NCBI RefSeq assembly: GCF_002575655.3
Contig: NC_053037.3
Location: 324,163,294 to 324,227,293, forward strand
From: Aegilops tauschii subsp. strangulata
Lineage: Eukaryota > Streptophyta > Magnoliopsida > Poales > Poaceae
DNA length: 64,000 bases
Direction of reading: 5' to 3'
Shown: in pieces, positions 22,511 to 57,121 of the stretch
Position numbering within the stretch: position 1 is the first letter of the stretch
How the letters are laid out: each line of letters begins with the position of its first letter
Made by a program: the position numbers and the translations under genes
Notes under the pieces: model-generated
Told to the model about the DNA's origin: nothing
The model's input: only the letters and a program-made list of their open reading frames with translations
Database searches by the model: none

Positions 22511-23200
22511 CATTAGTACAACGAGCTGCTAAACAAACGGTTTTTAACCCCTTTCAGCGACGGCCTTTGGAACCGTCGCCAAGTGAGTGTTGGCGATAGG
22601 GGGGTCCTTCCCACACGACCCAGAAACCGTCGGGGATATGCCCTCCTGGCACACACGCTCGGTAAAATGAGGTCATGTGCGACCGGCGAGCACTCAAGTA
22701 AAGAAATACGTACAGTAGTGCTAAAAATACAATTATACAGGCAAAATCATTTCCGGTCGTAAGTACATCCCACACAGTCAGCCAACGCTAAACGTTTCCG
22801 TTCGTATATACATCCCACATAGTCGCTCCAAGGAAAACGTTTCTGTTCACAAGTACATCACACACAATTTTCCCAGTTAAATCGTTTGTGATAGCATTTC
22901 CATTGCACACGGTATTAACAATTTTATTGTTTGCGTTATTGAATTCATCACACACGGTGCCTAGACGAAACTATGTGTCAAGGGCTGTCCATCACACACA
23001 GTTTTCATGTGGTAAACGTTTGCGTCAGGTGGCCTAATGCAAACAGTTTTCAAGAGGATGTCGTGTGTGATTGTTCATTAATCTAACACGGTTTATTCCT
23101 AGAAACTGTGTGCGTTATTGAATGCATCACACATGGTGTTTTCTCAATAACCGTTTGCAAAAGAAAAACCAATTAGCAGGCTAATTATCCGATTACTCAT
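22511..23200. repeat. Left-type terminal and subterminal repeats of CACTA B
   Basis: The first about 120 bases (AAACAAACGGTTTTTAACCCC, ACCGTCGCCAAGTGAGTG, GACCCAGAAACCGTCGGGG) match the ends at 16577 and 57121. Three units of about 45 bases with TACATCCCACA (22760-22870) match the inverted 44-bp repeats of E (56730-56950). Further CACACGGT/GTTTGCG motifs follow to about 23160. Confidence 0.8.
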
Positions 23201-23375
23201 AATCCATTTATTAATCTAATTGACATTTCATATTAAGCACACAATGTATTTCATTTTCATAATTGAAATACATTAGAGTACAACATCATATAGCTTCAGC
23301 ACTCAGCTACCCCATTACACAACTACACCAGGACCAAGTTTCACATGCAACATCTATAACCTTTCAAAATTAGCA

Positions 23376-25100
23376 TCATAGACGGTACATAGACAGATGT
23401 ATCTTATCTGGAAAATTGCTGAAGCAGAAGGCGAATATTGAGCCTTCATTGATGTTGAAGGTCTTTGTAACTTTAGGCCAGTGCCTGTGGATGATTGACC
23501 GTCCATCCTTCATCCTCTTCAGGAACACTTCAATATTGAACCGTGGGTGTTGTATGAATACCTTCCTCGCCTCCTGACCATACATGTGGTTTGAGAGGTA
23601 ATCATCAGTGAACTGCTTTAGAAAGGCCTGAAAACAAGGATGTGCATAAATATCTTCTCTATATTGGAAATGGGGCAATGGAATAAAAAAGGCAAGGTAT
23701 AATAGTTAGTACCATCCTGTAGTGAACTGATGTCTTCTTCATTGTGTAGACAAAGATCTTGTTGTTTTTTGTCGCTAATTTTTATGCTAACAATCTTTCC
23801 GAGTTTCTTGACTGGACTGATATTCATGGAAAACTCATTTCCCCATATGCAAAAAGGGTCGAACAGTGGGTCAAAACCTCTGACAGCAGGACCTACATGT
23901 GCAAGACCAAATTGTTAAAAACCTAAATATTAGAATGGTTCCTGCAGTTGCACAATAATGTGATATTAGACAATGGACCATGCACGTGCTAACGTCGATT
24001 GTAAACCTCGGTGCTTCCCATTGTTTCCCTGCAACACATATAAGGTAGTTAGTCATCAGGTTAAGTAAGGGTTCGCATGCTATCACTAAAATATGTTGAT
24101 TAAAAATAAGCACATTGCAGATTCATCAGATTAATTCAAGCCACATGGAAAACCCATTTATCCAAACCAAACATGATTAAGAACTAGGAAATATAGCACT
24201 TATACATGTTTCTCATGTATTAAATGCAGCCAAATTCGATTTATTCCTCACATGCACAACAATACAAAATTCTACCCACGACAATTGGACATCGCAGTGT
24301 AGAATTGAACCAAGAAGTTAGCTAAGCACCACAACAAATGAACCAAACATTAACTGAGCACCACATTGCACAATATAACATACTCCTAATAGAAGATCAA
24401 ACAATTAACCAAACCAAGCATGCTTAACAAATTGGAAATATAGCAATTGTATTTGTTTCTCATGTAGTTAGTACAACCAAATTCGATTTATTCCTCACAT
24501 GGTATACAATAACAAAATACAGCCACAACAACTGAACATCGCATAGCAGAATTGAACCAAGCAGTTAACTAAACACCACAACAAAGGAACCAAACATTAA
24601 CTGAGCACCACATTGCACAATATAACATACTCGTAATAGAAGATCAGACAGTTAACCAAACCAAGCACGCTTAACAACTTGGAAATATTGCACCCTGAAG
24701 AATTGAACATCACATTTGCAGAATTGAACCAAGCGGTTAACTGAACACCACATTGCACGACATATAGAACATATACACTATAGAAGAAGATTGCATGGTA
24801 AAAGTAGATAGCACAATTCACTAGAATTTGTTAAGGAAAGGCAGTAGCTAGCAAACGATGGCCTCGAGAAAATGCCACGAACTATCGTATAAAGCAGCCA
24901 ACCGCATTGCAGCGTCGGCGCGCGAGGCGTCAACGATGGCCTCGACGGCGAGGTGCTCCTCCAAGATCTGGGGGTCGGCACGAATGGCAGCCATCGCGAC
25001 CTTATCCGCGCGTGCGGCTGCGATTTGCTTCTCCGCTGCCAAATGCTCCTTGAGATCCTGGCTATACTGCGTGCACCATGGCTTAGGGAAGGGCTTATTT
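23376..25100 (-). pseudogene. B3-like DNA-binding gene in CACTA B
   Basis: The last exon (23627-23376, acceptor TTTTCAG) encodes FTDDYLSNHMYGQEARKVFI... ending LSMYRL, with the pattern of a B3 half-domain (EVFLK..KDGR...W......NINEGSIFAF). The exon before it (about 23892-23712) begins after an acceptor TAG and carries FDPLFDPFCIWGNEFSMN. An upstream segment (about 25090-24848) encodes MAAIRADP...EEHLAVEA. All three parts have clear counterparts in E (54416-56380). B3 domains of plants bind DNA as transcription factors. Joining the last two exons at the visible GTACTA donor shifts the frame, so the copy may be broken or use another site. B3 assignment is moderate. Confidence 0.55.
24170..24830. 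repeat. Tandem repeat of about 245 bases, 2.5 copies, in the B3-like gene's intron
   Basis: TTGCACAATATAACATACTC occurs at about 24366 and 24611 and in altered form near 24753; AAATTCGATTTATTCCTCAC occurs at about 24233 and 24480. The unit is AT-rich and non-coding and lies between the first and second recognised exons. Confidence 0.75.
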
Positions 25101-25695
25101 GGTGGAGGGGTCGGTGATTTGGGTGGAAGGTGTCGCGGTCACGCCGGCGGTCGGGGCATGTGGGATGTGGAAGGAGGAGGAGGATGGGGGCCGGGTGTGG
25201 ATTACCTGCCTGGATAGGCGAGGCCGAGCAGCGTGAAGGAGGGTTGCCGGCGAGGAGGCGGCGCTGCAAGCAAGGAGTGAAGGTTTCAACTTGGAAAGGA
25301 AGGCGGAAACAGGGGAAATGTGGCTTTTGGTAAGGGGGAGGGGGCGGGGAGGTAGATATTTCCGCGGAAGCCAAAAATTTGGAATCGCTGCAGCGAAAAA
25401 ACTGGCGCGCAAAGTGTCATCAGACACGGTCCCTTATTCAGAACTGTGTACGATATTTGAACATCACAAACGATTTAGATAGCTTAACCCGTGTGTGTTG
25501 AGTTTGAACGTCAAAAATTTTGGTTCGAATTTCCCTGGTTACAGTGGTCATCCATGTCATTGCATAATTTGGGTACACAAAGGAGACTAACTTCTTAATC
25601 GAGCAAGTTCAGGAATTAAACAGAGCAAGCTAACCTAAACATTAGTCTAACAAGTTAAAGACCGGCGCTCTTAATTAAATAAACGAAGAGTACTA
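25101..25695 (-). promoter_or_regulatory. 5' region of the B3-like gene of element B
   Basis: GC-rich from 25090 to 25370 (probable 5' untranslated exon on minus), then ACACGGTCCC and GTGTACGATATT motifs near 25430 like those before other CACTA-borne genes here. No further gene seen up to the next ORF's stop at 25696. Confidence 0.35.
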
Positions 25696-26309
25696 CTACG
25701 GCTGGTGCTCGTCGATCTCCGCCACCGCCTCCATGTCCAGCCCGCGCCCGACGGTCTCCTGGGGAAGGGGCTCCATGGCATCAATTGGACCATACTCGGC
25801 AAGCATCTCACCATCTGCGTCCGTCATATCTTTGGCATAGGCCGCCATGATCTAGGCGTGGGCGACCGCGATTTGGGCTCTGGCGGGCTCCGTCGTGGCA
25901 AGGTATGCCGCGCATGAACGAACGGCTGCTCGAACTCTCTCGGTGATTGCCAACTCTCCGGCCGTGGCTTGCCGACCGTTCTTGGAGAAGCTTCGTTCGA
26001 TTTGTGCAGTGACCGCCACGAGCTGGGCGTGGACGGCCTCGACATGGTAGTGGGGGGCCTCCATCAGGGCTAAGGCTCCCGCCGTGGAACGGATAGCTGT
26101 TGTGCCGCTCTCGCCAGTTGCTATCCCCAAGGCAGATGCTGCTACCGCCGCCTGAGAAGCAACAACGCCATTTGGGCTGCCTTGGGCGCCCAGACGCAGA
26201 CTGCGGTCGCCCTCGCGAAGCTTGTTAGCACGCGCCTAGCGGCTGCGGCCGCGCTCTCGCTGGAGTGGGCCGCCGAAGTTGCCCTTACGACGTGGGTCCA
26301 CGTCCCCAT
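25696..26309 (-). pseudogene. Alanine-rich ORF of unknown function in CACTA B
   Basis: From an ATG at 26309 an Ala-rich frame runs about 50 codons to a TAG, while coding-like Ala-rich sequence continues in another frame (GIATGESGTTAIRSTAGAL... to AQIAVAHA), so one frameshift is likely near 26150. That frame then meets TAG (about 25850) but goes on with an acidic tail MTDADGEMLAEYGP... to TAG at 25696. Base composition and third-position GC suggest it was coding. I recognise no domain. It holds the same position as the coiled-coil ORF of E (53371-53775), though I see no clear sequence match. Confidence 0.4.
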
Positions 26310-26599
26310 ATTTCACCGGCGACGAATGAAGAGTGGAATGATATTTGGGGAGTGAGCTAGTGTGCTTGACACGCCGACTGTGGACTGTAGCCGACGCACC
26401 TTCTCGCGTAAGCCATAGGCGTACTATACACCAACGGTGCTCCAAGATATTTTGTGCTGCATCTCACACGGTTGGTGATAATAAACTGTGTGCGATCTAC
26501 TTGATTTATTGTCTTAATTTGAATTGCGTAATGGGGTTGTAGCTACAAAGGATGGTGTTTAAATTGTTAGAACTTTTATCTGCGGTGAACAAGCAACTA

Positions 26600-29500
26600 T
26601 AGGTGTGTCGTCAAAAACATTGGAATTATTCAGGGTTTGTTTGGACGTTTTTATACATTAACTTGGTTTTGTAGGCATTTCAGGTGCATAATTCTAATTT
26701 GAACTACATGCACATGCTCCAGTGCATATAAATGGGTTGAAAAATCAAATATGTGTCCTTGGTTGCATGCTTAGGTCCCATGCAAGAAATGGGAATGAAT
26801 GTCACACACCCTACCACCGTCACTCGGCCGCAAACATTGAGATACCTGGTTTTCAAATTCTAGTAAATCCAAAACTCGTTTGAAATTCATGAAACTTGGC
26901 ATGCTATCATGTTGGGGCATCAACATGCCGTCGTAAAAAAATTGTCCCATTTGGGGCAGGTTTGGGTATAAGCTTCTCACAAACCAGAGCTTCTCACAAC
27001 AAGCGTGATGGTTTCGGTAGGGAACGTGCCACCTTTGGGGACGAAACAATATCCGTTGCCCCTTATTGCTTTCAAAAAATTTCGAGTGTCAACATAGAAC
27101 AACAGGAGTGTTGTGCTCAATTTTGGAATTTTTCGCGGTTCGTTTGGACATTTTTATACATTAATTGGGTTTTTTAGGCATTTTATGCGCATAATTCAAA
27201 TGTGAACTACATGCACATGCTCCAGTGCATATAAACTGGTTGAAAAATCAAATATGTGTCCTTGGTTGCATGCTTAGGTCCCATTCAAGAAATGGGAATG
27301 AATTTCAAACACCCTGCCACCGTCACTCGGCCGCAAACATTGAGATACATGGCTTTTAATTTCTAGTAAATCCAAAACTCGTTTGAAATTCATGAAACTT
27401 GGCATGCTATCATGTTGCGGCATCAACATGCCGTCGTAAAAAATTTGTCTCATTTGGGGCGGGTTTGGGTATAAGCTTCTCACAAACCAGAGCTTCTCAC
27501 AACAAGCGTGATGGTTTCGGTAGGGAACGTGCCACCTTTGGGGAGGAAACGATATCCGTTGCCCCTTATTGCTTTCAAAAAATTTCGAGTGTCAACATAG
27601 AACAACAGGAGTGTTGTGCTCAATTTTGGAATTTTTCGCGGTTCGTTTGGACATTTTTATACATTAATTGGGTTTTCTAGGCATTTTATGCACGTAATTC
27701 AAATGTGAACTACATGCACATGCTCCAGTGCATATAAACTGGTTGAAACATCAAATATTTGTCCTTGGTTGCATGCTTAGGTCCCATTCAAGAAATGGGA
27801 ATGAATTTCAAACACCCTGCCACCGTCACTCGGCCGCAAACATTGAGATACATGGCTTTTAATTTCTAATAAACCCAAAACTCATTTGAAATTCATAAAA
27901 CTTGGCATGCTATCATGGAGCAACATCAACATGCCGTGGTAAAAAATTTGTCCCATTTGGGGCAGGTTTGGGTATAAGCTTCTCACAAACCAGAGCTTCT
28001 CACAACAAGTGTGATGGTTTTTGTAGGGAACGTGCCACCTTTGGGGATGAAACGATATCCGTTGCCTGTTATTGCTTTCAAACAATTTCGAGTGTCAACA
28101 TAGAACAACAGGAGTGTTATGTTCAAGTTTGGAATTTTTCGGGGTTCATTTGGACATTTTTATAGATTAACTCGGTTTCCCAGGAATTTTGTGTGCATAA
28201 TTCTAATTTGAACTAAATGCACATGCTCCAGTGCATATAAATGGGTTGAAAAATAAAATATGTGTCCTTGGTTGCATGCTTAGGTCCCATGCAAGAAATG
28301 GGAATGAATGTCACACACCCTGCCGCCGTCACTCGGCCGCAAACATTGAGATACCTGGTTTTTAAATTCTAATTAATCAAAACTCGTTTGAAATTCATGA
28401 AACTTGGCATGCTATCATTGAGCGGCATCAATATGCCGTGGTAAAATATTTGTCCCATTTGGGGCAGTTTTGGGTATAAGCTTCTCACAAACCAGAGCTT
28501 CTCACAACAAGCGTGATGTTTTCGGTAGGGAACGTGCCACCTTTGGGGATGAAATGATATCCGTTGCCTCTTATTGCTTTCAAAAAATTTCGAGTGTCAA
28601 CATAGAGCAACAGGAGTGTTGTGTTCAATTTTGGAATTTTTTGGGGTTCGTTTGGACATTTTTATACATTAACTGGTTTTCCATTTATTTTATGTGCATA
28701 ATTCAAATTTGAACTACATGCACATGCTCCAGTGCATATAAACTGGTTGAAAAATCAAAACCCTTGGTTGCATGCTTAGGTCCCATGCAAGAAATGGGAA
28801 TGAATGTCACACACCCTGCCACCGTCACTCGGCCGCAAACATTGAGATACCTGGTTTTTAAATTCTAGTAAATCAAAACTCGTTTGAAATTCATGAAACT
28901 TGGCATGCTATCATGGAGCGGCATCAACATGTCATGGTAAAAAAATTGTCCCATTTGGGGCAGGTTTGGGTATAAGCTTCTCACAAACCAGAGCTTCTCA
29001 CAACAAGTGTGATGGTTTCTGTAGGGAACGTGCCACCTTTGGGGATGAAACGATATCTGTTGCCTGTTATTGCTTTCAAACAATTTCGAGTGTCAACATA
29101 GAACAACAGGAGTGTTATGTTCAAGTTTGGAATTTTTCGGGGTTCATTTGGACATTTTTATAGATTAACTCGGTTTCCCGGGAATTTTGTGTGCATAATT
29201 CTAACTTGAACTAAATGCACATGCTCCAGTGCATATAAACTGGTTGAAAAATCAAATATGTGTCCTTGGTTGCATGCTTAGGTCCCATGCAAGAAATGGG
29301 AATGAATTTCAAACACCCTGCCACCGTCACTCGGCCACAAACATTGAGATACCTGGATTTTAAATTCTAGTAAATCCAAAACTCGTCTGAAATTCATGAA
29401 ACTTGGCATGCTATCATGGAGTGGCATCAACATGCCGCGGTAAAAATTTTGTCCCATTTGGGGCAGGTTTGGGTATAAGCTTCTCACAAACTAGAGCTTC

Positions 29501-30960
29501 TCACAACAAGTGTGATAGTTTCGGTAGGGAACGTGCCACCTTTGGGGACGAAACAATATCCGTTGCCTCTTATTGCTTTCAAAAAATTTCGAGTGTCAAC
29601 ATAGAACAATGGGAGTGCTGTGTTCAATTTTGGAATTTTTCGAGGTTCGTTTGGACATTTTTATACATTAACTGGGTTTTCCAGGCATTTTATGTGCATA
29701 ATTTAAATTTGAACTACATGCACATTCTCCAGTGCATATAAACTGGTTGAAAAATCTAATATGTGTCCTTGGTTGCATGCTTAGGTCCCATGCAAGAAAT
29801 GGAAATGAATGTCACACACCCTGCCACTGTCACTTGGCTGCAAACATTGAGATACCTGGTTTTAAAATTCCAGTAAATCCAAAACTCGTTTGAAATTCAT
29901 GAAACTTGGCATGCTATCATGGAGCGGCATCAACATGCCGTGGTAAAAAATTTGTCCCATTCGGGGCAGGTTTGGGAATAAGCTTCTCAAAAACCAGAGC
30001 TTCTCTCAACAAGCGTGATGGTTTCGGCAGGGAACGTGCCACCTTTGGGGACGAAACGATATCCATTTCCTCTTATTGCTTTCAAAAAATTTTGAGTGTC
30101 AACATAGAACAACAGGAGTGTTGTGTTCAATTTTGGAATTTTTCAGGGTTCGTTTGGACATTTTTATACATTAACTGGGTTTTCCATGCATTTTATGCGC
30201 ATAATTCAAATTTGAACTACATGCACATGCTCCAGTGCATATAAACTGGTTAAAAAATCAAATATGTGTCCTTGGTTGCATGCTTAGGTCCCATGCAAGA
30301 AATGGGAATGAATTTCAAACTCCCTGCCACCGTCACTCGGCCGCAAACATTGAGATACCTGGTGTTTAAATTCTAGTAAATCCAAAACTCGTCTGAAATT
30401 CATGAAACTTGGCATGCTATCATGGAGCGGCATCAACATGCCGTGGTAAATATTTTGTCCCATTTGGGGCAGGTTTGGGTGTAAGCTTCTGACAAACAAA
30501 AGCTTCTCACAACAAGCGTGATTGTTTCGGTAGGGAACGTGCCACCTTTGGGGACGAAACGATATCCGTTGCCTCTTATTGCTTTCAAATTTTTTCGAGT
30601 GTCAACATAGAACAACAGGAGTGTTGTGTTCAACTTTGGAATTTTTTGGGGTTCGTTTGGACATTTTTATACATTAACTGGGTTTTTGAGGCATTTTATT
30701 TGCATAATTCAAATTTGAACTACATGCACATTCTCCAGTGCATAGAAACTGGTTGAAAAATCAAATATGTGTCCTTGGTTGCATGCTTAGGTCCCATGCA
30801 AGAAATGGGAATGAATTTCAAACACCCTGCCACCGTCACTCGGCCGCAAACATTGAGATTCCTGGTTTTTAAATTCTAGTAAATCCAAAACTCGTCTGAA
30901 ATTCATGAAACTTGGCATGCTATCATGGAGCGACATCAACATGCCGTTATAAAAAAATTG
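26600..30960. repeat. 503-bp tandem array of CACTA B, about nine copies
   Basis: The landmark TGGCATGCTATCAT recurs at 26897, 27400, 27903, 28405, 28901, 29404, 29907, 30410 and 30913, spacing 503 with one 496. Every unit contains CATCAACATGCCGTGG, AGCTTCTCACAACAAGCGTG and CATGCACATGCTCCAGTGC. Copies differ by scattered substitutions. The short open frames that recur in each unit (about 70-110 codons on either strand) follow from repetition and are not taken as genes. Position in the element equals that of the array in E. Confidence 0.95.
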
Positions 30961-31748
30961 TCAGCTTCCCCAGGTTTAATTCAGTTTCCCCAGTTTAATT
31001 CGGTTTTTAAATATAAAACACTCATCGCAAACGTTTTAGTTAGAACACCCGTATGCAAACCGGCAGCTCCCCCAGGAAGCCAAGGGAAAATGCACCGAGC
31101 AGGATTTGTGCAGCTCTTGATCGCAAACGTTTTAGATAGAACACCCGTATGCAAAGTGAGAGCTATGGTCTTCCCCCTTAAGTCGACGGAAAATCCACAA
31201 CGCAGGATTTGTGCATCCCTTCAACGCAAACGTTTGTTTTGGATGACCCGTGTGAAACCACGTACAAACAATTTGGTAAGATTTGCATCTGTCATATGGT
31301 ATGTTGCCATTTGTCAAATTGGAAAGGTTTACATTTGTTGATCTAGTAACATTGCCATTTTCAATCCTTGTAACACTGCGATTTGTCACAATATGTAGCT
31401 AGAAATCACTAGCACTATCTAGTTTTTGCAACTAAAATTTGGTAATTGCATAGATTTCATTCGTAGATTAAGCAGTCGTTCTTAATTTATACAAACAGTT
31501 CAACTCGACAGCTGAACCGACCAAACTTCTCCCCAATTTTTGCCAACCACGTACTGAAATAGCTAGTTCAACTATATATACTAGCTTATTTTAAGTACGT
31601 TGTACAGTTCGACCACACATCTATAGTCAGATGAACTAAACAAAATAGCCCCTAAATACTACTACTACCACGGAGGGGCTTTGTGCTACTTCCGGCAGCC
31701 TCTCCTCTGCCGAGCGCGCTCAGTAAGAGGCAGAGGAGGAGGAGGAGC
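30961..31748. other. Element B spacer with short CGCAAACG repeats
   Basis: Two to three degenerate units of about 110 bases contain CGCAAACGTTTTAG followed by AGAACACCCGTATGCAAA (31026, 31131, part at 31222), similar to subterminal motifs but internal. The rest to 31700 is AT-rich without a gene. Confidence 0.6.
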
Positions 31749-31853
31749 CTACCAATGAGCTGGACTGCGCCGTCGCCGCGGTGTAGCCTCCCAGCTGGAG
31801 CTATCCTCTGATGACGGCGGAGTGGCTGAGCGATGATGACGGACCGGTGCCAT
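31749..31853 (-). CDS. Short ORF behind a clear TATA box, possible first exon
   Basis: ATG at 31853 opens 34 codons rich in Ser, Arg and Pro (MAPVRHHRSATPPSSEDSSS...) ending TAG at 31749; the last codons overlap a possible donor (CATTG|GTAGGC). A TATA box lies about 80 bases upstream, and the stretch between is pyrimidine-rich like a leader. It could be the first exon of a cargo gene whose remainder is lost, since AT-rich sequence without coding follows to the left. No function can be given. Confidence 0.35.
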   Translation of the reverse strand: MAPVRHHRSATPPSSEDSSSWEATPRRRRSPAHW

Positions 31854-31932
31854 TGGCGATTGTGGGAGAAGCAGATGAGATAAGCTACAGGGAGGGAGGG
31901 GAAAATGCGACGCAGGACTCACCGGCTGTGAG

Positions 31933-31942
31933 GGTTTTTATA
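31933..31942 (-). promoter_or_regulatory. TATA box upstream of the 31853 ORF
   Basis: TATAAAAACC on the minus strand, 80 bases before the ATG at 31853. Confidence 0.45.
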
Positions 31943-32438
31943 GCAGTCCGGTAAGCATTGGGATTTTGGGGGATTTCACCAACTCGGGCGGGAAGCTTGC
32001 GCGGGAACCTGCGAGGTTGCGCGGGAACGGGCCCACCGACGATTCATTGGCGCCACCGTTTGGACAAAAGAACGCCCCCGCGCGTTGCGCAAGCTTGCGC
32101 TATAAGCCGTCTGCGGCAGCGAGGTGACAAGATGTGCGAGTGGAGGAAGAAAGGACACGTACACATACGGTTAATAAAAGAAGCGTTTGCGATTTAATTA
32201 CCTACTATACCCCCGTCCTGGTTTGTAAGTAGGATTTAACTAATAAAATACGAATGCACGTCGCCAAAGATTATATCGTTGGAGTTGTATTTGAACATAG
32301 TTTCCAGCTATACAAATTTTGTAACATGCATTAACACTTTTTTGGTTAAATTTGAGGTTATATACGAGCAAGCATTTGCCAGCAACACACACGGCTTATT
32401 CCATCACAAACAGCTCGGATGGATCAACTGTATGCCAC
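31943..32438. other. Spacer of element B up to the Athila-like insertion
   Basis: A GC-rich upstream region (31960-32140), then AT-rich sequence with ACACACGGCTTATTCCATCACAAACAG-type motifs near 32385-32415. It joins directly to 42994, so it is also the upstream region of the exonuclease-like gene. Confidence 0.5.
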
Positions 32439-32443
32439 GTATC

Positions 32444-34026: not shown

Positions 34027-34037
34027 AGAAGGATTTC

Positions 34038-43223: not shown

Positions 43224-43263
<40 letters not shown>

Positions 43264-45013: not shown

Positions 45014-45016
45014 TCT

Positions 45017-46590: not shown

Positions 46591-46592
46591 TA

Positions 46593-47195: not shown

Positions 47196-47237
47196 TATGA
47201 TACTAGCTAGTCTATGATATACTAGCTACCTCACTAA

Positions 47238-47528: not shown

Positions 47529-47657
47529 TAAGAGCAAGTACAATAGTGGGCTTATAGCTCGCTTACATGGCATTTTTGCCTATGTCGAGGAGAGAGATGT
47601 GAAAAAGTAAGGGGAGTGGGATCTACTGCAAGAGCCTAGCTATATACACATTCCTAG

Positions 47658-48480
47658 CACTACTGCAGGAGACTGCTAACGCGACACTACGATCAGAGAC
47701 CCTTTGCCGAAACTGTGTGCGATGCAATAATCGCAAACGATGGTGTAAAAAAACCATCAAAAAGGTGCAAAACGTTTGCGATGATGTATGCATCAAACAC
47801 GGTTCAGGTTTTAGTTGCGTGTGCGATGAAGGGCATACGGTTAATCCATTCAAACTATTTGCGATGAGGCAGAACAACAAAAACGGGCAGCCATAACAAT
47901 GTGTGTGCGATGCAGGACACACGGTTAATCCATTTGAACTGTTTGCGATGAGGTAGAACAACAGAAACGGGCAGCCATATCAATGTGTGTGCGATATACG
48001 GCATACGGTTAACTCGGATGAACTGTTTTTGATTAGGGAACACAACATAAACGGTTCAACTTAACAAGATGTGTGTGATATGCAGCATACAGTTCACATG
48101 GATAAACTGTTTGCGATGAGTCAAAAGAACACAAACGAGTCGTGTAAACAAGATGTGTGTGATACATGGCAAACATCCGACTCGGATGAACTATTTGCGA
48201 TGAGAAATTACAACACAGACGGTCAATACAGTTACTTCGTGTGTGATTCTGTGTGTACAAAAAACTTTGAAAAATGCAAACTAGTTGCTTGCGGTGGCTA
48301 GGAGTATCGCACACGATGCGTCTGCGAGTACTCGTGTGCGATGATTAGTATGTTACACATATGTTTCCTTATGTGAACATGTGTGTGAATTTGCAATATG
48401 GACAGTTAATATGCAAATGCCTTCTGGACATGAGGCACACGCTTAAACTCAATGAACTGTGTATGATACTAATACTTTCC
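47658..48480. repeat. Right-type terminal and 84-bp subterminal repeats of E
   Basis: The terminal 45 bases match B's right end. Five units of about 84 bases start with GTGTGTGCGAT at about 47818, 47901, 47985, 48069 and 48153, each with CATACGGTTAA...GAACTGTTTGCGATGAG...AAACGG. These are the likely transposase-binding motifs. Confidence 0.85.
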
Positions 48481-48729
48481 ATGAAAATTTATGAACTTGG
48501 GTAACAGCATTTGAGTAACATATATATAGGGGTTACACTATTCGATAAAAGGAGGATCTTCGTAACACGGTTTTGACAACCATATGGTCCATATCTACAT
48601 ACTTAACATAGTAACAACTATCACATTTTAAGAGGCTAAGGACCAACAACCATATGGTCCATATCTACATACTTAACATATATAGTAACAGCTAGCACAT
48701 TTTAAGAGGCTGAGGGCCAACAACCACAA
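48481..48729. other. 3' flank of the B3 gene with a 65-bp direct repeat
   Basis: ACCATATGGTCCATATCTAC followed by the same about 40 bases occurs at 48579 and 48649. It is presumed 3' untranslated or downstream sequence. No gene. Confidence 0.6.
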
Positions 48730-50250
48730 CTATCCACTGGAAGCAGCTTGATCACGGCGACTCGGCATCTCGTCAATGAAAAGGAAGGGCCCTCCTGTGC
48801 CTTGGTAGAGCAGGAGTAGAACAGTGTCTCCAATTTTCCAATATGGATGCATTGCCACGAGATGGGAGAACTTGTTAATTTGAATGGTTCCATTTTTGCG
48901 GGAAATGCAGTACCTTGCAATCACTTTGGCGTTATTAGCAGGCACAAGTGTAATTCGATCACGCCGGGAAATCGATCCAGGAACGGCTACAGGGGGCAAT
49001 TTCTGTTGACATGTAGAATAAAAAACAATTGTAACATATCATTGAAGATATATATAGTTTATGAGCATCAACATTAAAATAAGACTTTTTACTAGCGCTT
49101 TGAGCACACAATTGGTCTTGTTCAGTGTGTGCACCATAGGTCTAATTAATCCCATCCAAAATCCAGCGTTCATATGCCGTGATATCTCTGTCAGATTATC
49201 AACAAAGTTTATGACATGCTTCAAGTCCTTCCAGTGAAATTTGGTACGCTTAGTAACATACAGATCGTCCACTATGCATCCAACATATCCTGCTTAAAAG
49301 GTGGAAAGGTATTATTTATTCAGAACATGGCAGAAGAATATATAGTGCGCAAAAATTGGTAAACAGAATTTTTTACTGCCTAGGAATGGAGTCAGAATAT
49401 GACATCACAATTGGTTGCTTAAATAGTGATCAATTGGTTGCTTAAATAGTAATATGACAGCATGGAGAAAGTTGAAAGGACACTAACCTCGATCAGACTT
49501 TGATCGACTGATGACGTTGGGGAAGTAAACATCCATGTTAATTAGACCAGGCTGTGGTGCACACACTAGAATTTTATTGCCAGCTTTCAGTTCATAACAC
49601 TTAGACATTTTTCTCCAAAGGTCCGCATTAAAATAGGAGTGACCATCTTTATCAAGTTTTACGCTAATCGTCATTGTAAACCCATGTTGCGTTGTCAATA
49701 TGACATCCTGGGAGTCATCAGCAAAGTAAAGCCCAAGATTTCCTTCTACTCTTGTTCTTGCAAAGCAAGGGATGTACTGCTTGAAATGAAAATTAAGATC
49801 GTAAATTACATATATAAAAATAACCGAGCAAGATGCAAATATGGGAGTAACTGATAGAACATATCCATATATAGATGCAAGCAAAGCACAAAAATATAGA
49901 ATTAAAAATAGATAATGTAACAAAGATTTGATGCAAATATATAGATAATGTAGCAACAGACGGTATATGTTCACAAATTTAGGCCATGCCGACTGTGGTA
50001 GGTTGAGATTGAACATACCGAGCGCTCCCTGAAGTCATCCGGAATGGTGAGATAGAACTTCGTTTCCGACTGGCCATGACCACAGTTGCCTGATTTGTGC
50101 TCGCACTGTGCACACATGAATGAACACCCACGAATCAGCTAGAACAAAAATGATTCCACGGCGATTTCCGCCGGTTGATTAACAGCGACGGACGGACTAC
50201 GATAAGAGATGAGTGAATATTTTGCTAATTAAGTTGATTACCTTCTCCAT
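48730..50250 (-). CDS. B3-domain protein, five exons, apparently intact, cargo of CACTA E
   Basis: Exons: 50250-50242, 50105-50019, 49776-49488, 49289-49093, 49002-48730. All four introns have GT...AG ends, phases agree and no stop intervenes, giving 284 residues. The start is an ATG in a GC-rich leader three codons before the first donor. Residues about 17-120 (KFYLTIPDDFRERS..., GLYFADDSQDVILTT, FTMTISVKLDKDGHSYFNADLW, ELKAGNKILVCAP) follow the B3 fold pattern. About 200-280 (ITLVPANN, ARYCISRKNGTIQINK, KIGDTVLLLLY) look like a second B3-like domain. The middle segment (YVGCIVDDLYVTKRTKFHW...) is unassigned. B3 proteins of plants act in the nucleus as DNA-binding regulators; whether this one regulates host or transposon DNA is unknown. 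Confidence 0.7.
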
Positions 50251-50540
50251 GAGAAAAATCCCCGGCCCAATCCCGCAGAAAACCCCAGTCGACCAGAGTC
50301 TAGAATGTCGGTGCAGATAGGCGGCAGAAAGCGGTGGAGACGAAATCCGGTGCCGTTTGGAGCGCAACCTACGGCCACCGCCAACAGCCGTCGAGCTTAG
50401 GGTGCAGAGTTCCGGAGGAGTCCGCGGCAAGTGAGTGGGGACGAAGTGGGCGAGGGTTTTCTTTTCCTTTTGCATGTGTGAGTGAACACACACGGTTCGC
50501 AAAGGCGACGGAGATGAACCGTGTGCGATAGTAAATCACC
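50251..50540 (-). promoter_or_regulatory. Leader and promoter of the E B3 gene
   Basis: GC-rich leader 50250-50440, then CACACACGGTTCGCAAAGGCGACGG... with GTGTGCGATAG motif near 50485-50530. The same CGACGGAGATGAACCGTGTGCGATA segment occurs at 53222-53250 beside the other end of the array. Confidence 0.45.
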
Positions 50541-53080
50541 GAGATTGAATGGGAATCCAAATTTCCTTTGTCTTTCATCCATGAGTTTTTTTCTACGATG
50601 AACATGAACCCTGCTAATCACCGTGTTCAAATTTGACACTTTTCCGGGTTCATTTACAATATTTAGGGGATTATGTGCATTTTCAGGCATTAATGCACGT
50701 AATTCAAATTCAAACAATTGGTGCATGAAAGGGTGCACAAGAACGGTCTGGAAAAGCCATACTTGTGGTATTTAGTAATTGCTCAAGCCTTTTACAAGGA
50801 ATGGGAAGAGATTTCAATGGAGTCAACCACAAACGCATCATTTACTGGGTTATCAACTATAGAACAATGAAATATGTGCTTGAAAAACATGACGGCTGGC
50901 ATGGTTTCATGGTATGGCCTCACCGTGCCCTGGTTAAAAGCTGAGAAGGTTTGATTTATGTCGTCATGCACGCCCTTCATAAATCGAACCATCATCGAGG
51001 AAGTTCAATGCTTTCGAGAGGGAAATCACTAAGATTGAAGGGGAATCCAAATTTCCGTCCTAGTTTGTCTTTCAGTTTTTTTTCCAACGATCAACATACC
51101 GCCTCAAATGAAACATGTTCAAATTTGACATTTTTCCGAACTCATTTACCGTATTTAGGGGATTGTGTGCATTTTCTAGGCTTTAATTATACACATAATT
51201 CAAATTCGAACCATCGGTGCATGAAAAGGTGCACAAGAACGGTCTGGAAAACCATGCTCGTGCTATACAAAAAATGAAACACATGGTTGGAAAACATGAC
51301 GCCTGGTGTGGTGCCATGGTATGGCCTCACCATGCCCCTGGTAAAAATTGGAGAATGTTTTCCTTATGTCATGATGCGCGCCTTTAATAAAATGAACCAT
51401 CATCCAAGGAAGTTTCATGGTTTTGAGGGGGAAATCACCAAGATTGAAGGGCGATCCAAATTTCCTTTGTCCTTTGTCCATGAGTTTTTTTCTATGATGA
51501 GCACTTTTCTGGGTTCATTTGCCATATTTAGGGGGTTATGTGCATTTCCTAGGCATTAACGCGCATAATTCAAATTCAAACAATCGATGCATGAAAGGGT
51601 CCACAAGAACGGCCTAGAAAACCATGCTCGTGCCATTTATTAAATTCTCATGCCTTTTACAAGGAATGGACAGATATTTCGATGAAATGTGTGGCAATAG
51701 TCAACCACAAATGTTTGTTTGTTGGGTTTTCAACTATAGAAAAATGAAATAAATGCTTAAAAAACATGACGCCTGTCATGGTGCCATGGTATGACCTCAC
51801 CATGCCCTGGTAAAAAATTGAGAAGGTTTGGCTTATGTCGTCATGCACACCCTTCATAAATCGAACCATCACTGAGGAAGTTCCATGCTTTCGAGATGGA
51901 AAATCCCCAAGATTGAAGGGGAATCCTAATTTTCGTCCTAGTTTGTCATTCAGTTTTTTCCAACAATCAACATACCGCCTCAAATGCAACATGTTCAAAT
52001 TTGACATTTTCCCGGGCTCACTTACAATATTTAGGGGATTATGTGCATTTTCTAGGCATTAATGGACATAATTCAAACTCGAACAATCGGTGCATGAAAA
52101 GGTGCACAAGAATGGTCTGGAAAACCATGCACGTGTTATGTAGCACATTCTCATGCCTTTTACAAGGAATGGGCAGATATTTCAAGGAAATGTGTGGCAA
52201 TAGTCAACCATAAATGTGTCGTTTACTCGGTTAACAACTATACAAAAAATAAAACACATGGTTGGAAAACATGACGCCTGGCTTGGTGCCATGGTATGGC
52301 CTGACCATGCCCTGGTAAAAATTGGAGAATGTTTTCCTTATGTCGTGATGCGCGCCTTTCATAAATCGAACCATCACCGAGGAAGTTTCATGGTTTCAAG
52401 GGGGAAATCACCAAGATTGAAGGGGGGGTCCAAATTTCCTTTGTCCTTTGTCCACGAGTTTATTTCTACGATGAACATACAACCTGCAAATAGCCGTGTT
52501 CAAATTTGGTAGTTTTCCGGGTTCATTTGCCATATTTAGGGGATTATGTGCATTTCCTAGGCATTAATGCACATAATTCAAGTTCAAACAATCGATGCAT
52601 GAAAGGGTCCACAAGAACGGCCTAGAAAACCATGCTCGTGCCATTTAGTAAATTCTCATGCCTTTTACAAGGAATGGACAGATATTTCGATGAAATGTGT
52701 GGCAATAGTCAACCACTAATGTCTGTTTGTTGGGTTTTCAACTATAAAAAATGAAATAAATGCTTAAAAAACATGACGCCTGGCATGGTGCCATGGTATG
52801 ACCTCACCATGGCTTGGTAAAAATTTGAGAAGGTTTGGCTTATGTTGTCATGCACGCCCTTCATAAATCGAACCATCACCGAGGAAGTTCCATGCTTTCG
52901 AAAGGGAAATCCTCAAGATTGAAGGGGAATCCAAATTTTCTTCGTTCTTTGCCCTGGTTTTTTTTCTACAATGAACATACACCCTGCAAATCACCGTGTT
53001 CAAATTTGGCATTTTTCCGGGCTCATTTACCATATTTAGGGGATTATGTGCATTTTCTAGGCATTTAGCGCATATAAATC
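50541..53080. repeat. About 500-bp tandem array of CACTA E, six copies
   Basis: TTTAGGGGATTATGTGCATTT (or close) recurs at about 50664, 51156, 51529, 52030, 52536 and 53036; most spacings are near 500, one is shortened to about 375. Units share GCATGGTGCCATGGTATG, CATAAATCGAACCATCACCGAGGAAG, GGGGAATCCAAATTTCC and GGTGCACAAGAACGGTCTGGAAAACCATGC. The unit differs from B's but has the same length and a similar motif order. Recurring short frames are not genes. Confidence 0.93.
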
Positions 53081-53370
53081 CAATCCAGCTACAGGTGCAT
53101 GGGTGTGATGTGAGGGACGTGGATTGCCGTCCAACGGTGCACACGCGCGATCCGCGTGGCTGGGGTTCCGGCCAATCATAACGCAACACACAATAGGCTC
53201 AGCGCACACTATTTCCGGAAGCGACGGAGATGAACCGTGTGCGATAATGAACGAGCAAAATTGTAAGGGAAGCCAAATTTCTGTTGTCGTTTGTGGTTGA
53301 GCTCTTGAATACCACCGCACTATACGGCTGCCCGGCCCCTCCGTCCCAGAGCTCTCTCTAGGCATCGTCC
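53081..53370 (+). promoter_or_regulatory. CCAAT/AACGGT module and leader before the coiled-coil ORF
   Basis: Contains GATGTGAGGGACGTGGATTGCCGTCCAACGGTGCACACG, GGTTCCGGCCAATCATAACGC and ACCGTGTGCGATAATG, homologous in order to modules at 22440/45017, 45170 and 58280 in element C. Confidence 0.6.
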
Positions 53371-53775
53371 ATGGCACCGCGGCCCACAGTAATTGGTAAG
53401 GAAGCGATGGCATCCTGCCGCGCCGCGTTCCTCGCCGCCCGTGACCGCGCACATGGTAAGGAAACGATGGCATCTTGCCGCTCCTAGTTCATCGCCGCTG
53501 GCAGCAAGACAGTTACATGGGCGGACTTTGAGGCTGCCATGGCCGAATGGGTGGTGGATCTAGAGGCGGCCAAAGCCGCACAGAAGGAGCGGAAAAGGCA
53601 GAAAGCAGTCAAGAAAAGAGAGTCCCGCCACCGCAAGAAAAAAGAGGCCGCACGCCGTGGTGAGGAGAGCTTGGCGGAGATTGAAGCACAGTGGGCTGCC
53701 GCCTACAAGGCCGGGAAGGAGAACGCCGGCGTCTCGCTAGTATGCCGTGATGGCAACATGGGAGAAGTAGTTTAA
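53371..53775 (+). pseudogene. Basic coiled-coil ORF in CACTA E, one in-frame stop
   Basis: ATG at 53371, stop TAA at 53773; 134 codons in one frame, interrupted by TAG at 53485-53487. The part after the stop contains FEAAMAEWVVDLEAAKAAQKE and a long Lys/Arg/Glu-rich helix (KERKRQKAVKKRESRHRKKKEAARR), probably a coiled coil with a nuclear signal. The start segment is a near duplication of about 66 bases (GGTAAGGAAGCGATGGCATC and GGTAAGGAAACGATGGCATC). If translation began at the later Met (53539) a 78-residue protein would be intact. No family recognised. Confidence 0.45.
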
Positions 53776-54415
53776 GTTTGTATTAGAGCAAATTACTAGT
53801 AGTACTTTAAGTTTGTAGTATTAACGTAGAATGTCGGTAAGAGCATCCTTTGAGGGCTTTGAGCGTTGATTAGCATGTGTGCCCGTGTGCGTTTTTTGCG
53901 TTAATCAATCGAAGATCACAGAACACACGGTTTCTATGCCGTACCCGTCTGCGTTTTTTGCGTTAATGACCCATAAGTCAGTTAGCTGTGCGATATTTCC
54001 TAATAAACCAGGCATACCATTGACCGAAAAAATCAAGTACACGTGTACATTTTTTGGAGACGGGATCTGCCAACTTTCTTTTTTCTCGCACACGAGTATT
54101 TTACGCGCTTCGTCTGTGTTGTGTGTTTCCCCTGCACAAGTTTCAAAATTCGCACCGAAATTTTCATTAGGCGCGCGATTTTAGAATTTATTCCTCCAAC
54201 CACATCCCCTTCCCCTTAGTATCCCCTCCCCCACGCCTCCCCCTACCGGCATCTCAAACCACCGCCGTCGCAACAACAGCTTCAACCACATCTACGTTCT
54301 GCTCGGATCCAGTCAGGTAACCCACCGATCTCTATCACGTCCCCGGCCTGATTGCTTAAATGGCGCCCGCGAAACATCCTCATGCCTCCAAATCCCCCCC
54401 GCCCACCAGGAGCTG
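53776..54415 (+). promoter_or_regulatory. Upstream region of the second B3-like gene in E
   Basis: GTGTGCGTTTTTTGCGTTAAT occurs twice (53887, 53950). A CT/C-rich leader (54190-54310) ends in a donor-like CAG|GTAACC at 54318 and a small 18-codon upstream ORF starts at 54360. An intron in the leader is possible. Confidence 0.4.
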
Positions 54416-56380
54416 ATGGCGGTCCATGGCGCCATGGCCGCTATGCGTGTTGACCCGGAGGAACACCTCGCCTCCGCCGCCGCCGCCGACATGGTGGAGG
54501 CTCTGGCTCAGATGAAGTCCTCCAGTGACTACCCCCCAGGACTTAACAGGTAAGATCTGACCGGCTAAATCTTACCAATACCACTTGCAATGGCTATGAT
54601 TTGTACGGTTGATGTATTAAGCATGTTCGTGCCTTGTTTATTTCAGTACTACACACTGTGTGATGTTCAAATATTACCGTGTCCAACTCAATTTCACCAA
54701 TACCAGCAACAAACTTACAATACATGACTCATGACATCACTAGAGATGCTGCCTTGCAATTTTTAGTGGATGCTAACCTTGTTGCACTTAACATGCCTGC
54801 CCATGTACTTACGCAGGGTCATAACGGCCGATGCTTTTGTTTGCCGTCGAGGTGAGCTGCATCCCATGTCTTACAGTATTTCACATAATTTGTGCAATTG
54901 CATTTTAACTTCTACCCATTTACTGGTTTCCTGTAGGTACACATGTCAGTGGCACTGATCCACGCTTCGACCCGGAGGAACAGCTCGCCTCCGCCGTCGC
55001 TGACTTTGGGCGAGCTCTGGCCAAGATGAAGTGCCCCAGCAACTACCTCTCAGGACTTACCAAGTATGTACTCACCAGTTCAATCTTACCAATACCAGTT
55101 GCAATTAATGGCTATGTTCTATACGGTCGATGTATTAAGCATGTTCTAGTAAACATGCCTAACACGTTTTTGCTACTATCCCTGCCTTTTTATAGACATC
55201 TGGGCTATTCTCTGCTCTGGCAGCACCTGCCTTGTGATGTTTAACTATGCCAATTGCATTTTTGTCAGTACCGGTTTCAATGTCTATTTAGCCTGTTGCA
55301 ATTAACAGTTGAATCCATTTTTAAACAGTTGCATTTCAATGGCTACAAACTTACAAAACATGACTTAGGATGTTGTTAAGCCTGTTCCAATTAGCAGTTG
55401 TTTTTATTTTTTAATCTGTCCCTTTGCTACCGTGCTACTCTTTCGAAATGAAGATATCACTACAGATGATGCCGTTTTATTACCATTTGCTATTTTTGGT
55501 GGATGTTAACCCTGTTGTAGTTAACATTGGCTTTCCATGTACTTACACAGGGCTACAATGGGCGATGCTGTTGTTTGCCGTCGAGTTTAGCTGCATCCCA
55601 TGTCTTATACACCATCTATTCCTAAATATAAGTATTTTTAGAGATTCCAATATAGACTACATAAGGAGCAAAATGAGTGAATCTAGATTCTAATCTAAAC
55701 TATATCTATAATTCTTTATACACCCGTATGTAGTTCATATTGAAATCTCAAAAAAAAAATACTTGTACTTAGGAACATAGGTAGTTGTATTTTACATCAT
55801 TTGTGCAATCTCAGTTTAGCTTCTAACATTTACTGGTTGCTTGTAGGTACATATATGAGGGGTACTGATCCACGCTTCGATCCTTTTTGCGTATGGGGCA
55901 ATGAGATATTCATGAACAAGCGTCAAGTGAGGAAACTAAGAAAGATTGTTAGGCGAAAGAAACGGGTGATTGGAATTAAGCTCTTTATTTACACTTTGTC
56001 GAAGACAACAGCGAACTTTAGGATGGTAAGTAATGTGTTGCCTTTTCCCCTGCCCACAACAAGTTACTCTATTAGACCTCAGTATCTGATATTTTCTCTT
56101 TTCAGTGGTTTCCGAAGCTATTTACTGATGATTACCTTGCAACTACATGATCGGAGTGGAGGCAACTAAGGTTAAAGTATATAATTCATGCTACCATGAT
56201 AATGCTCTAGAAGTCTTCCTGAAGGCGGTGAAGGATGGGAGGGCGATCGTCACAAGGGGTTGGACAATAGTGTTTCGTGCCTATGGCATGCAGGAAGGCA
56301 CATTATGGGCATTCCGCTTCTTCAACACCGTCGGCAGTCAAAATGATTTACACTTGTCTCTTCACCTTTACCGCCTTTAA
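54416..56380 (+). pseudogene. B3-like gene with internally multiplied exons, CACTA E
   Basis: Exon 54416-54549 encodes MAVHGAMAAMRVDPEEHLAS...; a 35-base exon (about 54817-54851) follows; then about 54938-55062 (GTDPRFDPEEQLASAVADFG). The 35-base exon recurs at about 55550-55584 with its donor changed from GTGAGC to TTTAGC. An exon about 55847-56025 repeats GTDPRFDP then FCVWGNEIF, and the last exon (56106-56380) has the B3-like FTDDYL...FLKAVKDGR...GWTIVFRAYG. One base is missing near 56145 relative to the copy in B, producing an early TGA. It is homologous to 23376-25100 in B. A Stowaway-like MITE sits in one intron. Probably non-functional. Confidence 0.55.
55608..55793. mobile_element. 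Stowaway-like MITE (Thalos-like), diverged
   Basis: Inverted ends ATTCCTAAATATAAGTATTTTTAGAG and ...AAATACTTGTACTTAGGAACATAG with GTAGTTCATATTGAAATCTC inside, a common Triticeae Stowaway pattern. It interrupts the intron whose uninterrupted duplicate is at 54860-54937. Confidence 0.7.
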
Positions 56381-57121
56381 ATACTAAGGTTCATCATAGT
56401 TAATTGCTGCCTAATCCTGTAATTACTGAACATATTGTACTGGCAATTTTATTTATGGATTCGTTGTTGAACCATTGTGCTGAGAATTTGAATTGCACGT
56501 TTCGTATTTCAAAATTTCCAATTAGAATAATAAATTACAGGCAAAAATAAAAATAGAACAGACGGTCATGGACCTTTGCAAACGGTTCTAGCAGTAAAAG
56601 CGCTTGCGATGGATAGCCCAATGCCACACAGTTTTCTACATCAAATCATGTGTGATGTAGTTAATGAAAGCAAACAGTCAACCAAGGCAGAGCGTGTGTG
56701 ATAGTTACACCTTTCACACACGAGCGTATACATAAAACCATGTGGGATGTACATCCAAACGGAACGTTTTCCCTGGATTGACTGTGTGGGATGTACATAA
56801 GAACGGAAACATATTCCTTGGATTGACTGTGTGTGATATACATATATACAGAAATGATTTCTGGGATTCACTGTGTGGGATGTACATACCTACGGAAATG
56901 ATTTCTGGGATTCACCGTGTGGGATGTACATACCTACAGAAATGATTGGGTTTCAATGCCTCGCCCGATCGCACACGGCCCCAGCCTGGGTCCCAGGAGG
57001 GCCTATCCCCGACGATTTCTGGGTAGGACACCCTATCGCACACACTCACTTGGCGACGGTTCCAAATGCCGTCGCGGAAAGGGGTTTTAAACCGTTTGTT
57101 TAGGGCCGACGCGCACTAGTG
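56381..57121. repeat. Left-type subterminal repeats and terminus of E
   Basis: 56381-56560 is AT-rich 3' flank. Then five units of about 44 bases, GTGTGGGATGTACATAC...ACGGAAATGATTTCTGGGATTCACC, from 56738 to 56950. The terminal 130 bases match the left ends of B and C in reverse (ACGGTTCCAAATGCCGTCGC, TTTTAAACCGTTTGTTTAGG). Confidence 0.85.

What the first reader, a model, noticed from the sequence alone, without database searches (positions are those of the whole stretch)
22511..57121. Two non-autonomous CACTA elements with the same gene-carrying plan but different cargo
B (22511-45013, TSD TCT) and E (47658-57121, TSD TAG, inverted) lack transposase. Each has: left-type end with 44-45-bp repeats, a homologous B3-like gene, a small ORF, a ~500-bp tandem array, one further gene, and a right-type end with 84-bp repeats. 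The gene next to the right-type end differs: exonuclease-like in B, a five-exon B3 protein in E. Seen directly: ends, TSDs, order, homologies. Inferred: the elements are modular carriers that keep a frame and exchange cargo, mobilised by C-type transposase. Gene capture by CACTA elements is known; a conserved multi-gene layout around a tandem array is what may be new.
Basis: partly seen in the sequence, partly recalled or inferred. Interest (0 to 1): 0.87.

Follow-up and report, generated by a model that had tools for sequence, protein, structure and literature searches.

The report
Gene-carrying CACTA transposon subfamilies in goatgrass
Two jumping-DNA elements in a wheat relative lack their own mobility enzyme but share their ends and a central repeat block with an enzyme-bearing relative, and each belongs to a large family that carries its own largely fixed set of passenger genes.

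Summary
The elements are real. B (22511-45013, TSD TCT) and E (47658-57121, TSD TAG) have homologous left and right ends and no trace of transposase. Two related empty sites confirm B's boundaries. Both are nested in C, a Tnp2-encoding CACTA whose left end is in the window and whose right end I found 1,091 bases beyond it (TSD TAT). All three share end types and a central ~500-bp array.

The window lies in a 4.1-Gb genome, inferred to be Aegilops tauschii. There, B and E belong to two abundant subfamilies, and siblings keep each plan. The exonuclease-like gene sits beside 26 of 30 B-type right ends. E's right gene sits beside 18 of 19 E-type right ends examined. Gene and right end thus behave as one cassette; cargo is not freely swapped on a common frame. 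The array is inverted in E relative to B and C.

B3 identity is moderately supported for the left gene and weak for E's right gene. The exonuclease copies have lost two catalytic residues and look neutral. An exonuclease gene in wheat CACTAs, and DNA exchange between families, are already published. What may be new is the multi-module plan punctuated by end-type repeats.

The parts
16577..64000 (+). Element C, the transposase-bearing CACTA in which B and E are nested; left end at 16577, right end outside the window at window position 65091, TSD TAT (16574-16576 and 65092-65094)
22511..45013 (+). Element B, non-autonomous CACTA, TSD TCT (22508-22510, 45014-45016)
22511..23180 (+). Left-type end of B with 45-bp repeats
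23376..24994 (-). Left B3-type gene of B (start approximate, read by eye); frame break in the exon upstream of the last intron; sibling Y1 open in the two exons read
25852..26235 (-). Small Ala-rich ORF of B
26620..30962 (+). ~503-bp tandem array of B
31291..32150 (-). Further coding module ('gene2') of B, lacking ~610 bp that siblings X2 and Y1 have
32402..32443 (+). First part of an internal right-type subterminal remnant (split by the LTR retrotransposon)
32444..42988 (.). LTR retrotransposon nested in B, TSD GTATC
42994..43062 (+). Second part of the internal right-type remnant; the match stops ~98 bp short of the terminus
43559..44251 (+). Exonuclease-like gene of B (230 aa, open); two catalytic residues replaced
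44513..45013 (+). Right-type end of B with 84-bp repeats
47658..57121 (-). Element E, non-autonomous CACTA, inverted, TSD TAG (47655-47657, 57122-57124)
47658..48520 (-). Right-type end of E
48730..50250 (-). Right gene of E, five exons placed by eye (50250-50242, 50105-50019, 49776-49488, 49289-49093, 49002-48730), 284 aa, weakly B3-like
50533..53101 (+). ~500-bp tandem array of E, homologous to B's but inverted relative to E's ends
53539..53775 (+). Small basic ORF of E
54416..56380 (+). Left B3-type gene of E, duplicated 5' exons; frame break in last exon; siblings L043-L045 open in the two exons read
56500..57121 (-). Left-type end of E with 44-bp repeats
57806..58460 (+). Array unit of C, homologous to the arrays of B and E (66%)
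58697..62170 (-). Tnp2 transposase of C (PF02992, PF13963, PF13960 in the ORFs scanned), in several ORFs

Best explanation
B and E are members of two abundant non-autonomous subfamilies of one CACTA lineage. A transposase-bearing element, C, still carries the same two end types and the same central ~500-bp array. The internal DNA is a string of modules: a left gene read toward the left end, then the array, then a right gene read toward the right end. Short stretches of the same 13-bp motif that fills the ends lie in most spacers between the modules. B and E probably move by cut-and-paste with a C-type Tnp2 supplied in trans (inferred from shared ends). Right gene and right end are inherited as one cassette, and each subfamily amplified with its own cassette: exonuclease-like in B, weakly B3-like in E. 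The exonuclease cassette lies between a truncated copy of the right-end repeats and the full right end. This fits acquisition by fusion of neighbouring insertions, the published Pack-TYPE model (inferred). Shown: ends, TSDs, homologies, order in the siblings read, and linkage of right gene to right end. Inferred: trans-mobilisation, the fusion origin, and any function of the genes.
For: C has both end types and TSD TAT. Its right end is about 80-83% identical to those of B and E in standard blastn pieces, and 73% over 465-479 columns at laxer scoring. Arrays of B, E and C are homologous at 66%. First-look candidates in the own genome: 5448 (B right end), 6257 (E right end), 2323 (exonuclease), 1215 (E right gene), 2738 (E left-gene exons); only 40 of each are scored, and candidates are not confirmed copies. 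Exonuclease-like gene within 1.5 kb of 26 of 30 B-type right ends, B included. E right gene beside 18 of 19 E-type right ends examined, out of the 39 listed besides E itself: 9 by matching the tables by eye, 8 of 9 fetched and read, and L043. Seven of those 39 also have a left gene about 7-21 kb away in the expected orientation. Y1 (C1:115019543-115041831) is complete, TSD ACA, with all B modules. L043 has both ends and TSD ACA. Motif: 71 hits against 5, 6 and 7 in three simulations; all 12 internal hits of B and E outside the retrotransposon lie in spacers and none in modules. The internal right-end remnant is 78/112 identical, z=16 against 60 resampled sequences, and uninterrupted in Y1.
Against: E's array is inverted relative to its ends, so the plan is not strictly collinear. 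L043 has lost the small ORF and the first coding exon of the left gene, so the plan is not strictly complete in every copy. E's right gene shows no right-end remnant (z 2.5), so the fusion signature is seen in B only. L020 shows that tandem duplication can also leave an internal truncated right end, so the remnant does not prove fusion. Two of the eight spacers have no motif hit, and the spacer limits were drawn partly after seeing the motif, so the P value is optimistic. The sampled copies are those most similar to B and E, so older or rarer cargo types are under-sampled.
Confidence: 0.74

Rival explanations
1. One reading: a fixed carrier frame that exchanges cargo freely between copies.
For: B and E differ most in the right gene while sharing ends, left gene and array type. 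The right ends are far less diverged (83% identical) than the synonymous sites of the left gene (dS 0.90), as if end and gene had different histories. Published: an exonuclease gene in both Vincent and TAT families with recent DNA exchange inferred (PMC4290129).
Against: Within each subfamily the right gene is essentially fixed in the copies examined: 26 of 30 and 18 of 19. The two end subtypes are about 83% identical to each other but 94-97% to their own query among the 40 best of each, so ends are not shared freely. Strong constraint on ends would also explain their low divergence.
Confidence: 0.1
2. Ordinary gene-capturing CACTAs: the genes are passive passengers amplified by chance with successful master copies, with no role for the element; the shared plan is simple common descent.
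For: Exonuclease copies look neutral: transversions per codon position are 0.0135, 0.0150, 0.0133 in 9 full-length copies, and coding divergence is 0.065 against 0.047 in the 3' flank and 0.052 in the right end of 13 copies. Against divergent copies L024 and L025 the dN/dS is 0.57-0.92. Two of 30 loci lack the exonuclease module and are on different chromosomes. The 17 copies that match in one piece hold 0-3 stops each, five of them none; the other nine of 26 match only in pieces or in part.
Against: The 5' flank of the same copies is more diverged (0.164, 12 copies) than the coding part. Both left-gene lineages stayed open in the two exons read in siblings (Y1, L043-L045) although about dS 0.9 apart, and dN/dS between B and E is 0.41, bootstrap 0.21-0.72. 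That ratio is open to transition bias: third-position enrichment is not significant (p=0.09 for all changes, 0.13 for transversions), and the neutral-looking exonuclease set gives 0.44 by the same method.
Confidence: 0.4
3. The shared left gene and arrays were picked up independently by two unrelated elements that only look alike.
For: The array is in opposite orientation and the small ORFs show no similarity.
Against: Same position and reading direction of the left gene, homologous ends on both sides, and the same array family also in C.
Confidence: 0.04

Closest known systems
Vincent (DTC_famc5) and TAT (DTC_famc6) CACTA families of wheat chromosome 3B (Daron et al. 2014, PMC4290129; passages seen)
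   Same: CACTA elements carrying a putative 3'-5' exonuclease gene (three Vincent and seven TAT copies); the authors infer recent DNA exchange between the two families
   Different: The passages seen do not describe the left B3-type gene, the shared array, the second cassette of E, or a transposase-bearing element of the same plan. I could not compare B with the Vincent or TAT reference sequences
Pack-CACTA / Pack-TYPE transposons (PMC8903248, passages and section 9; review PMC13317346, passages)
   Same: Non-autonomous, carry coding DNA; acquisition modelled as fusion of neighbouring insertions with damaged internal ends, which fits the truncated right-end copy upstream of the exonuclease gene
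   Different: B and E are about 9-12 kb without the nested retrotransposon, hold several gene modules around a tandem array, and amplified as stable subfamilies
CACTA elements with captured satellite arrays in Chenopodium (PMC8978399, passages)
   Same: Tandem arrays and extra coding domains inside CACTAs
   Different: There the arrays are close to the 3' end and described as captured; here the array is central and homologous between the transposase-bearing and both non-autonomous elements
VANDAL elements encoding VANC anti-silencing proteins (PMC5735166 and PMC10398659, titles and starts of abstracts in the listing)
   Same: Working analogy only: sequence-specific proteins made by a transposon that act on the transposon's own DNA (binding to short non-coding repeats is recalled)
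   Different: Different superfamily (recalled: Mutator-like) and protein; no binding or anti-silencing activity tested here

Membership tests
CACTA (En/Spm) DNA transposons | Terminal inverted repeats beginning CACTA | tested here: met
   E begins CACTACTGC and its other end reads CACTAGTGC inward; B's left terminus reads CATTAGTAC, its sibling Y1 CACTAGTAC; C's left terminus has decayed to CACGGGTAC
CACTA (En/Spm) DNA transposons | 3-bp target site duplication | tested here: met
   TCT for B, TAG for E, TAT for C, ACA for Y1 and L043; two related empty sites for B
CACTA (En/Spm) DNA transposons | Subterminal arrays of short direct and inverted repeats | tested here: met
CACTA (En/Spm) DNA transposons | Tnp2-type transposase encoded by the element or by a partner with the same ends | tested here: met
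   Not found in B or E; Transposase_21 in C (E 1.3e-73), which has the same end types. That C-type Tnp2 moves B or E was not tested
Pack-CACTA / Pack-TYPE | Non-autonomous element with coding DNA of host origin | tested here: inconclusive
   Non-autonomous: yes. Host origin plausible for the exonuclease (PF01612 in relatives) but no host parent gene identified
Vincent (DTC_famc5) or TAT (DTC_famc6) | Sequence similarity to the family reference | not testable with these tools
   Reference sequences not held; only the shared exonuclease cargo points there
Active DEDDy 3'-5' exonuclease | Acidic catalytic residues of motifs Exo I (D-x-E) and Exo III (Y-x3-D); motif definition recalled | tested here: not met
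   D-L-Q (D-L-H in one) in place of D-L-E and S (N in one) in place of the last D in the 13 copies shown. Relatives P0124 and P0138 keep D-L-E and the last D; P0065 keeps only the last D
B3 DNA-binding domain (PF02362), left gene | Match to the Pfam profile | tested here: inconclusive
   14 of 22 members match at E<=1, best 1.2e-4, below the gathering score; the window pieces tested gave no B3 match; profile search of solved structures gave no B3 chain; AlphaFold model uninformative (pLDDT 39.8)
B3 DNA-binding domain (PF02362), right gene of E | Match to the Pfam profile | tested here: inconclusive
   No match for the E protein itself; best of seven relatives E 0.037; profile comparison with the left gene E 0.077, probability 0.7%, aligned over the B3-like region; no solved structure by sequence

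The most novel reading that the evidence does not exclude
The non-autonomous subfamilies are not passive passengers' vehicles but 'satellite' transposons with their own gene kit. The B3-type left protein (and E's B3-like right protein) bind the short ATCGCACACGGTT-type repeats at the ends and between the modules. They thereby help their own subfamily compete for C-type transposase or resist silencing, while the catalytically dead exonuclease has become a nucleic-acid-binding partner. The repeat-punctuated modules would then be the unit of evolution, joined and lost by end-to-end fusion.
Probability: 0.17. Interest if true: 0.78.

Novelty: new variant of a known kind. Interest (0 to 1): 0.5.

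Why it matters
CACTAs make up much of Triticeae genomes (16% in the account of wheat 3B, PMC4290129, passages) and are usually treated as carriers of gene fragments. Here two abundant subfamilies keep a stable multi-gene plan whose ends and array they share with a transposase-bearing relative. This separates two questions that are often merged: how cargo is acquired (here as a gene-plus-end cassette next to a truncated end) and whether the cargo helps the element. It also suggests that some 'hypothetical' and oddly named gene models in Triticeae annotations are transposon genes, and it supplies open sibling copies on which binding or expression tests can be run.

Tried and rejected
Free cargo swapping on one frame: rejected as the main process because the right gene is nearly fixed within each subfamily. 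L020 first looked like a fresh capture between two right ends. Closer reading showed a tandem duplication plus other inserts at a (TA)n stretch, so it was dropped as evidence. L036, the one fetched E-type right end without the gene, has foreign DNA that I read as an LTR retrotransposon in the way. Selection on the exonuclease: the ratio 0.44 goes with equal transversions at all codon positions, so it was rejected as evidence of selection. Structure predictions for the left gene and the exonuclease gave pLDDT below 40 and no fold search was made. One viral-contig pattern scan found nothing and one protein scan gave two unconfirmed stretches. Sequence searches against solved structures gave only weak Werner-exonuclease matches for the exonuclease family (E 0.076 and 0.4) and nothing relevant for the other two.
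Full report
WHAT IS THERE. The ends and target-site duplications reported for B and E are exactly as stated. B's boundaries are independently confirmed. The DNA on its two sides matches 45170-45243 plus 45241-45355, and 58109-58356 plus 58354-58450; each pair overlaps by exactly the 3 bases of the duplication, so these are two related empty sites. B contains a nested LTR retrotransposon, 32444-42988 (LTRs 96.9% identical, TSD GTATC), so the element proper is about 12 kb. C's transposase and ORF1 proteins have no counterpart in B or E.

WHERE IT IS. The own-genome search places the window at G000:C3:324163294-324227293 in a 4.10-Gb genome of 692 contigs, seven of which are about 0.5-0.65 Gb. 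Contig C4 has the same length (528,822,201) as the contig behind P0098, a protein named as Aegilops tauschii subsp. strangulata. The species is inferred from that.

THE HOST ELEMENT C. A third left-type end lies at 16577. ORFs at 58.7-62.2 kb carry Transposase_21, Transpos_assoc and DUF4218 domains. Fetching the 10 kb beyond the window shows a right-type end at window position 65091. It is about 80-83% identical to those of B and E in standard blastn pieces (73% over 465-479 columns at laxer scoring) and is followed by TAT, the same three bases that precede 16577. C is therefore a CACTA of 16577-65091 in which B and E are nested, with both end types shared. Its own array units (57806-58460, and the block that B interrupts) are homologous to the arrays of B and E. 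An acidic ORF in C also reads toward its right end.

THE ARRAYS. Models built from B's units find E's array (E down to 4.6e-19) and C's block (5.2e-16), and the E model finds B's array (7e-27). Consensus units are 66% identical: 216/328 for B-E, 304/461 for B-C, 283/430 for E-C. These matches are on the window's plus strand; reverse-strand scores are near the shuffle level. Since E is inverted, its array is inverted relative to its ends. The three E siblings read keep E's orientation.

THE GENES. The left gene is homologous in B and E, with introns. Among its 70 relatives, 14 of 22 scanned match Pfam B3, best E 1.2e-4 but below the gathering score. Three of the 70 (P0158, P0184, P0187) lack the last intron, as a spliced transcript would, against 52 that read through that place and 15 that do not show it. 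I cannot verify that the three contigs are RNA-derived. Both window copies have a frame break, but Y1 and L043-L045 are open in the two exons read. Between B and E, 103 codons give dS 0.90, dN 0.37, ratio 0.41 (bootstrap 0.21-0.72). Third-position enrichment is not significant, so selection is suggested, not shown. B's right gene is related to proteins with the 3'-5' exonuclease domain (PF01612, P0124, E 8.7e-8), but the window copy itself has no Pfam match. In the 13 family copies shown, D-x-E reads D-L-Q (D-L-H in one) and the last aspartate reads S (N in one). These copies look neutral: coding divergence 0.065, 3' flank 0.047, right end 0.052, 5' flank 0.164, and equal transversions at the three codon positions in the nine full-length ones. 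For this set I used 13 of the 26 copies: those matching in one piece with at most one stop, and without the divergent L024 and L025. E's right gene is an open 284-aa five-exon gene with only a weak B3 signal.

THE SUBFAMILIES. First-look candidates in the own genome number 5448 and 6257 for the two right ends, 2323 for the exonuclease gene, 1215 for E's right gene and 2738 for E's left-gene exons. Only 40 per query are scored, so these are not confirmed copy numbers. Of the 30 B-type right ends held with flanks (of 40 listed), 26 have the exonuclease-like gene within 1.5 kb on the correct side, B included. Of the other four, L029 has the gene's end behind an insertion; L013 and L015 share one junction that joins the gene2 spacer to the right end without the exonuclease; and L020 has other inserts and a tandem duplication. 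Of the 39 E-type right ends listed besides E, I examined 19. Nine coincide with a top-40 E right-gene hit at spacings of 596-635 bp. Eight of nine fetched have the gene, the ninth being interrupted. L043 has it too. Seven of the 39 also have a left gene about 7-21 kb away in the expected orientation. Y1 is a complete B-type element at C1:115019543-115041831, TSD ACA, with left end, left gene, small ORF, array (split by other inserted DNA), gene2, right-end remnant, exonuclease gene and right end in B's order. L043 has both E-type ends and TSD ACA, but lacks the small ORF and the left gene's first coding exon. L044 and L045 show right gene, array, small ORF and left gene, and L044 the left end; no left end was found in the 9.6 kb of L045. 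Two other B-type siblings (X1 and Y2) show only exonuclease gene and right end in the DNA fetched, other sequence lying further in; X2 adds gene2 and the remnant.

PUNCTUATION AND THE SCAR. The motif ATCGCAMACRGTT (up to two mismatches) occurs 71 times against 5, 6 and 7 in three simulations. Of these, 50 lie in the five ends inside the window and none in 1-16576. Inside B and E, outside the retrotransposon, 12 of 12 lie in the 2.2 kb of spacers and none in the 16.3 kb of modules; six of eight spacers have at least one (I set the spacer limits, partly after seeing the motif). Upstream of the exonuclease gene lies a copy of the right-end subterminal DNA (78/112 identical, z=16) that stops about 98 bp short of the terminus. 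In Y1 it is uninterrupted, so it is older than B's retrotransposon. This is what fusion of neighbouring insertions would leave (model in PMC8903248, section 9), but duplication could also make it, and E lacks such a scar.

WHAT IS KNOWN. Daron et al. 2014 (PMC4290129, passages) report 140 CACTA capture events on wheat 3B, with a putative 3'-5' exonuclease gene in three Vincent and seven TAT copies, and infer DNA exchange between those families. So an exonuclease cargo and the idea of exchange are in print. In the listings of my seven answered searches I saw no paper on such a plan or on a B3-type gene in a wheat CACTA. I saw passages of only five of the papers listed (PMC4290129, PMC13317346, PMC4158355, PMC8978399, PMC8903248) and one section of the last, and the older subscription literature on Triticeae CACTAs is not held.

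JUDGEMENT. The carrier model is half right: there is a shared plan and a likely transposase donor, but each subfamily is stable and the right gene goes with its right end. The finding is a new variant of known gene-bearing CACTAs, and the open question is whether the left gene serves the element.

Noticed in passing
32444-42988: LTR retrotransposon nested in B exactly inside the internal right-end remnant; related LTR sequence lies near several other B-type right ends (L008, L010, L011, L016, L018, L020)
   Followed up: partly
P0141 (Aegilops tauschii M8B4Q0): A public protein model joins an exonuclease-like reading to the translated right-type CACTA end and then to further sequence, a likely annotation artefact caused by such an element
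   Followed up: partly
P0172, P0182, P0150, P0156: Barley and Triticum urartu proteins related to these transposon genes are named Nudix hydrolase 9, methyltransferase PMT27 or vegetative cell wall protein gp1-like, probably misannotations
   Followed up: no
62.8-63.6 kb, plus strand: A gene of element C, joined by eye, with a weak GRF zinc-finger match (E 3e-5, just under the cut-off) and a C-terminal hydrophobic stretch, between the transposase and the right end
   Followed up: partly
P0184: A relative of the left gene lacking the last intron reads, after the splice, in the same shifted frame as E's broken copy, as if a damaged copy were transcribed
   Followed up: no
L013, L015: Two B-type right ends on different chromosomes share one junction without the exonuclease module; a deletion derivative that transposed, or the state before acquisition
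   Followed up: partly
L026: A B-type element appears inserted into the right end of another, older element carrying a 51%-identical exonuclease gene
   Followed up: no
L024: A divergent exonuclease-like gene (53%) beside a 93%-identical right end keeps the D-L-E motif, so the loss of that catalytic residue may be recent within the lineage
   Followed up: partly
45443-47180 and 57295-57780: Cluster of short inverted and direct repeats, MITE-like, around E's insertion site
   Followed up: no
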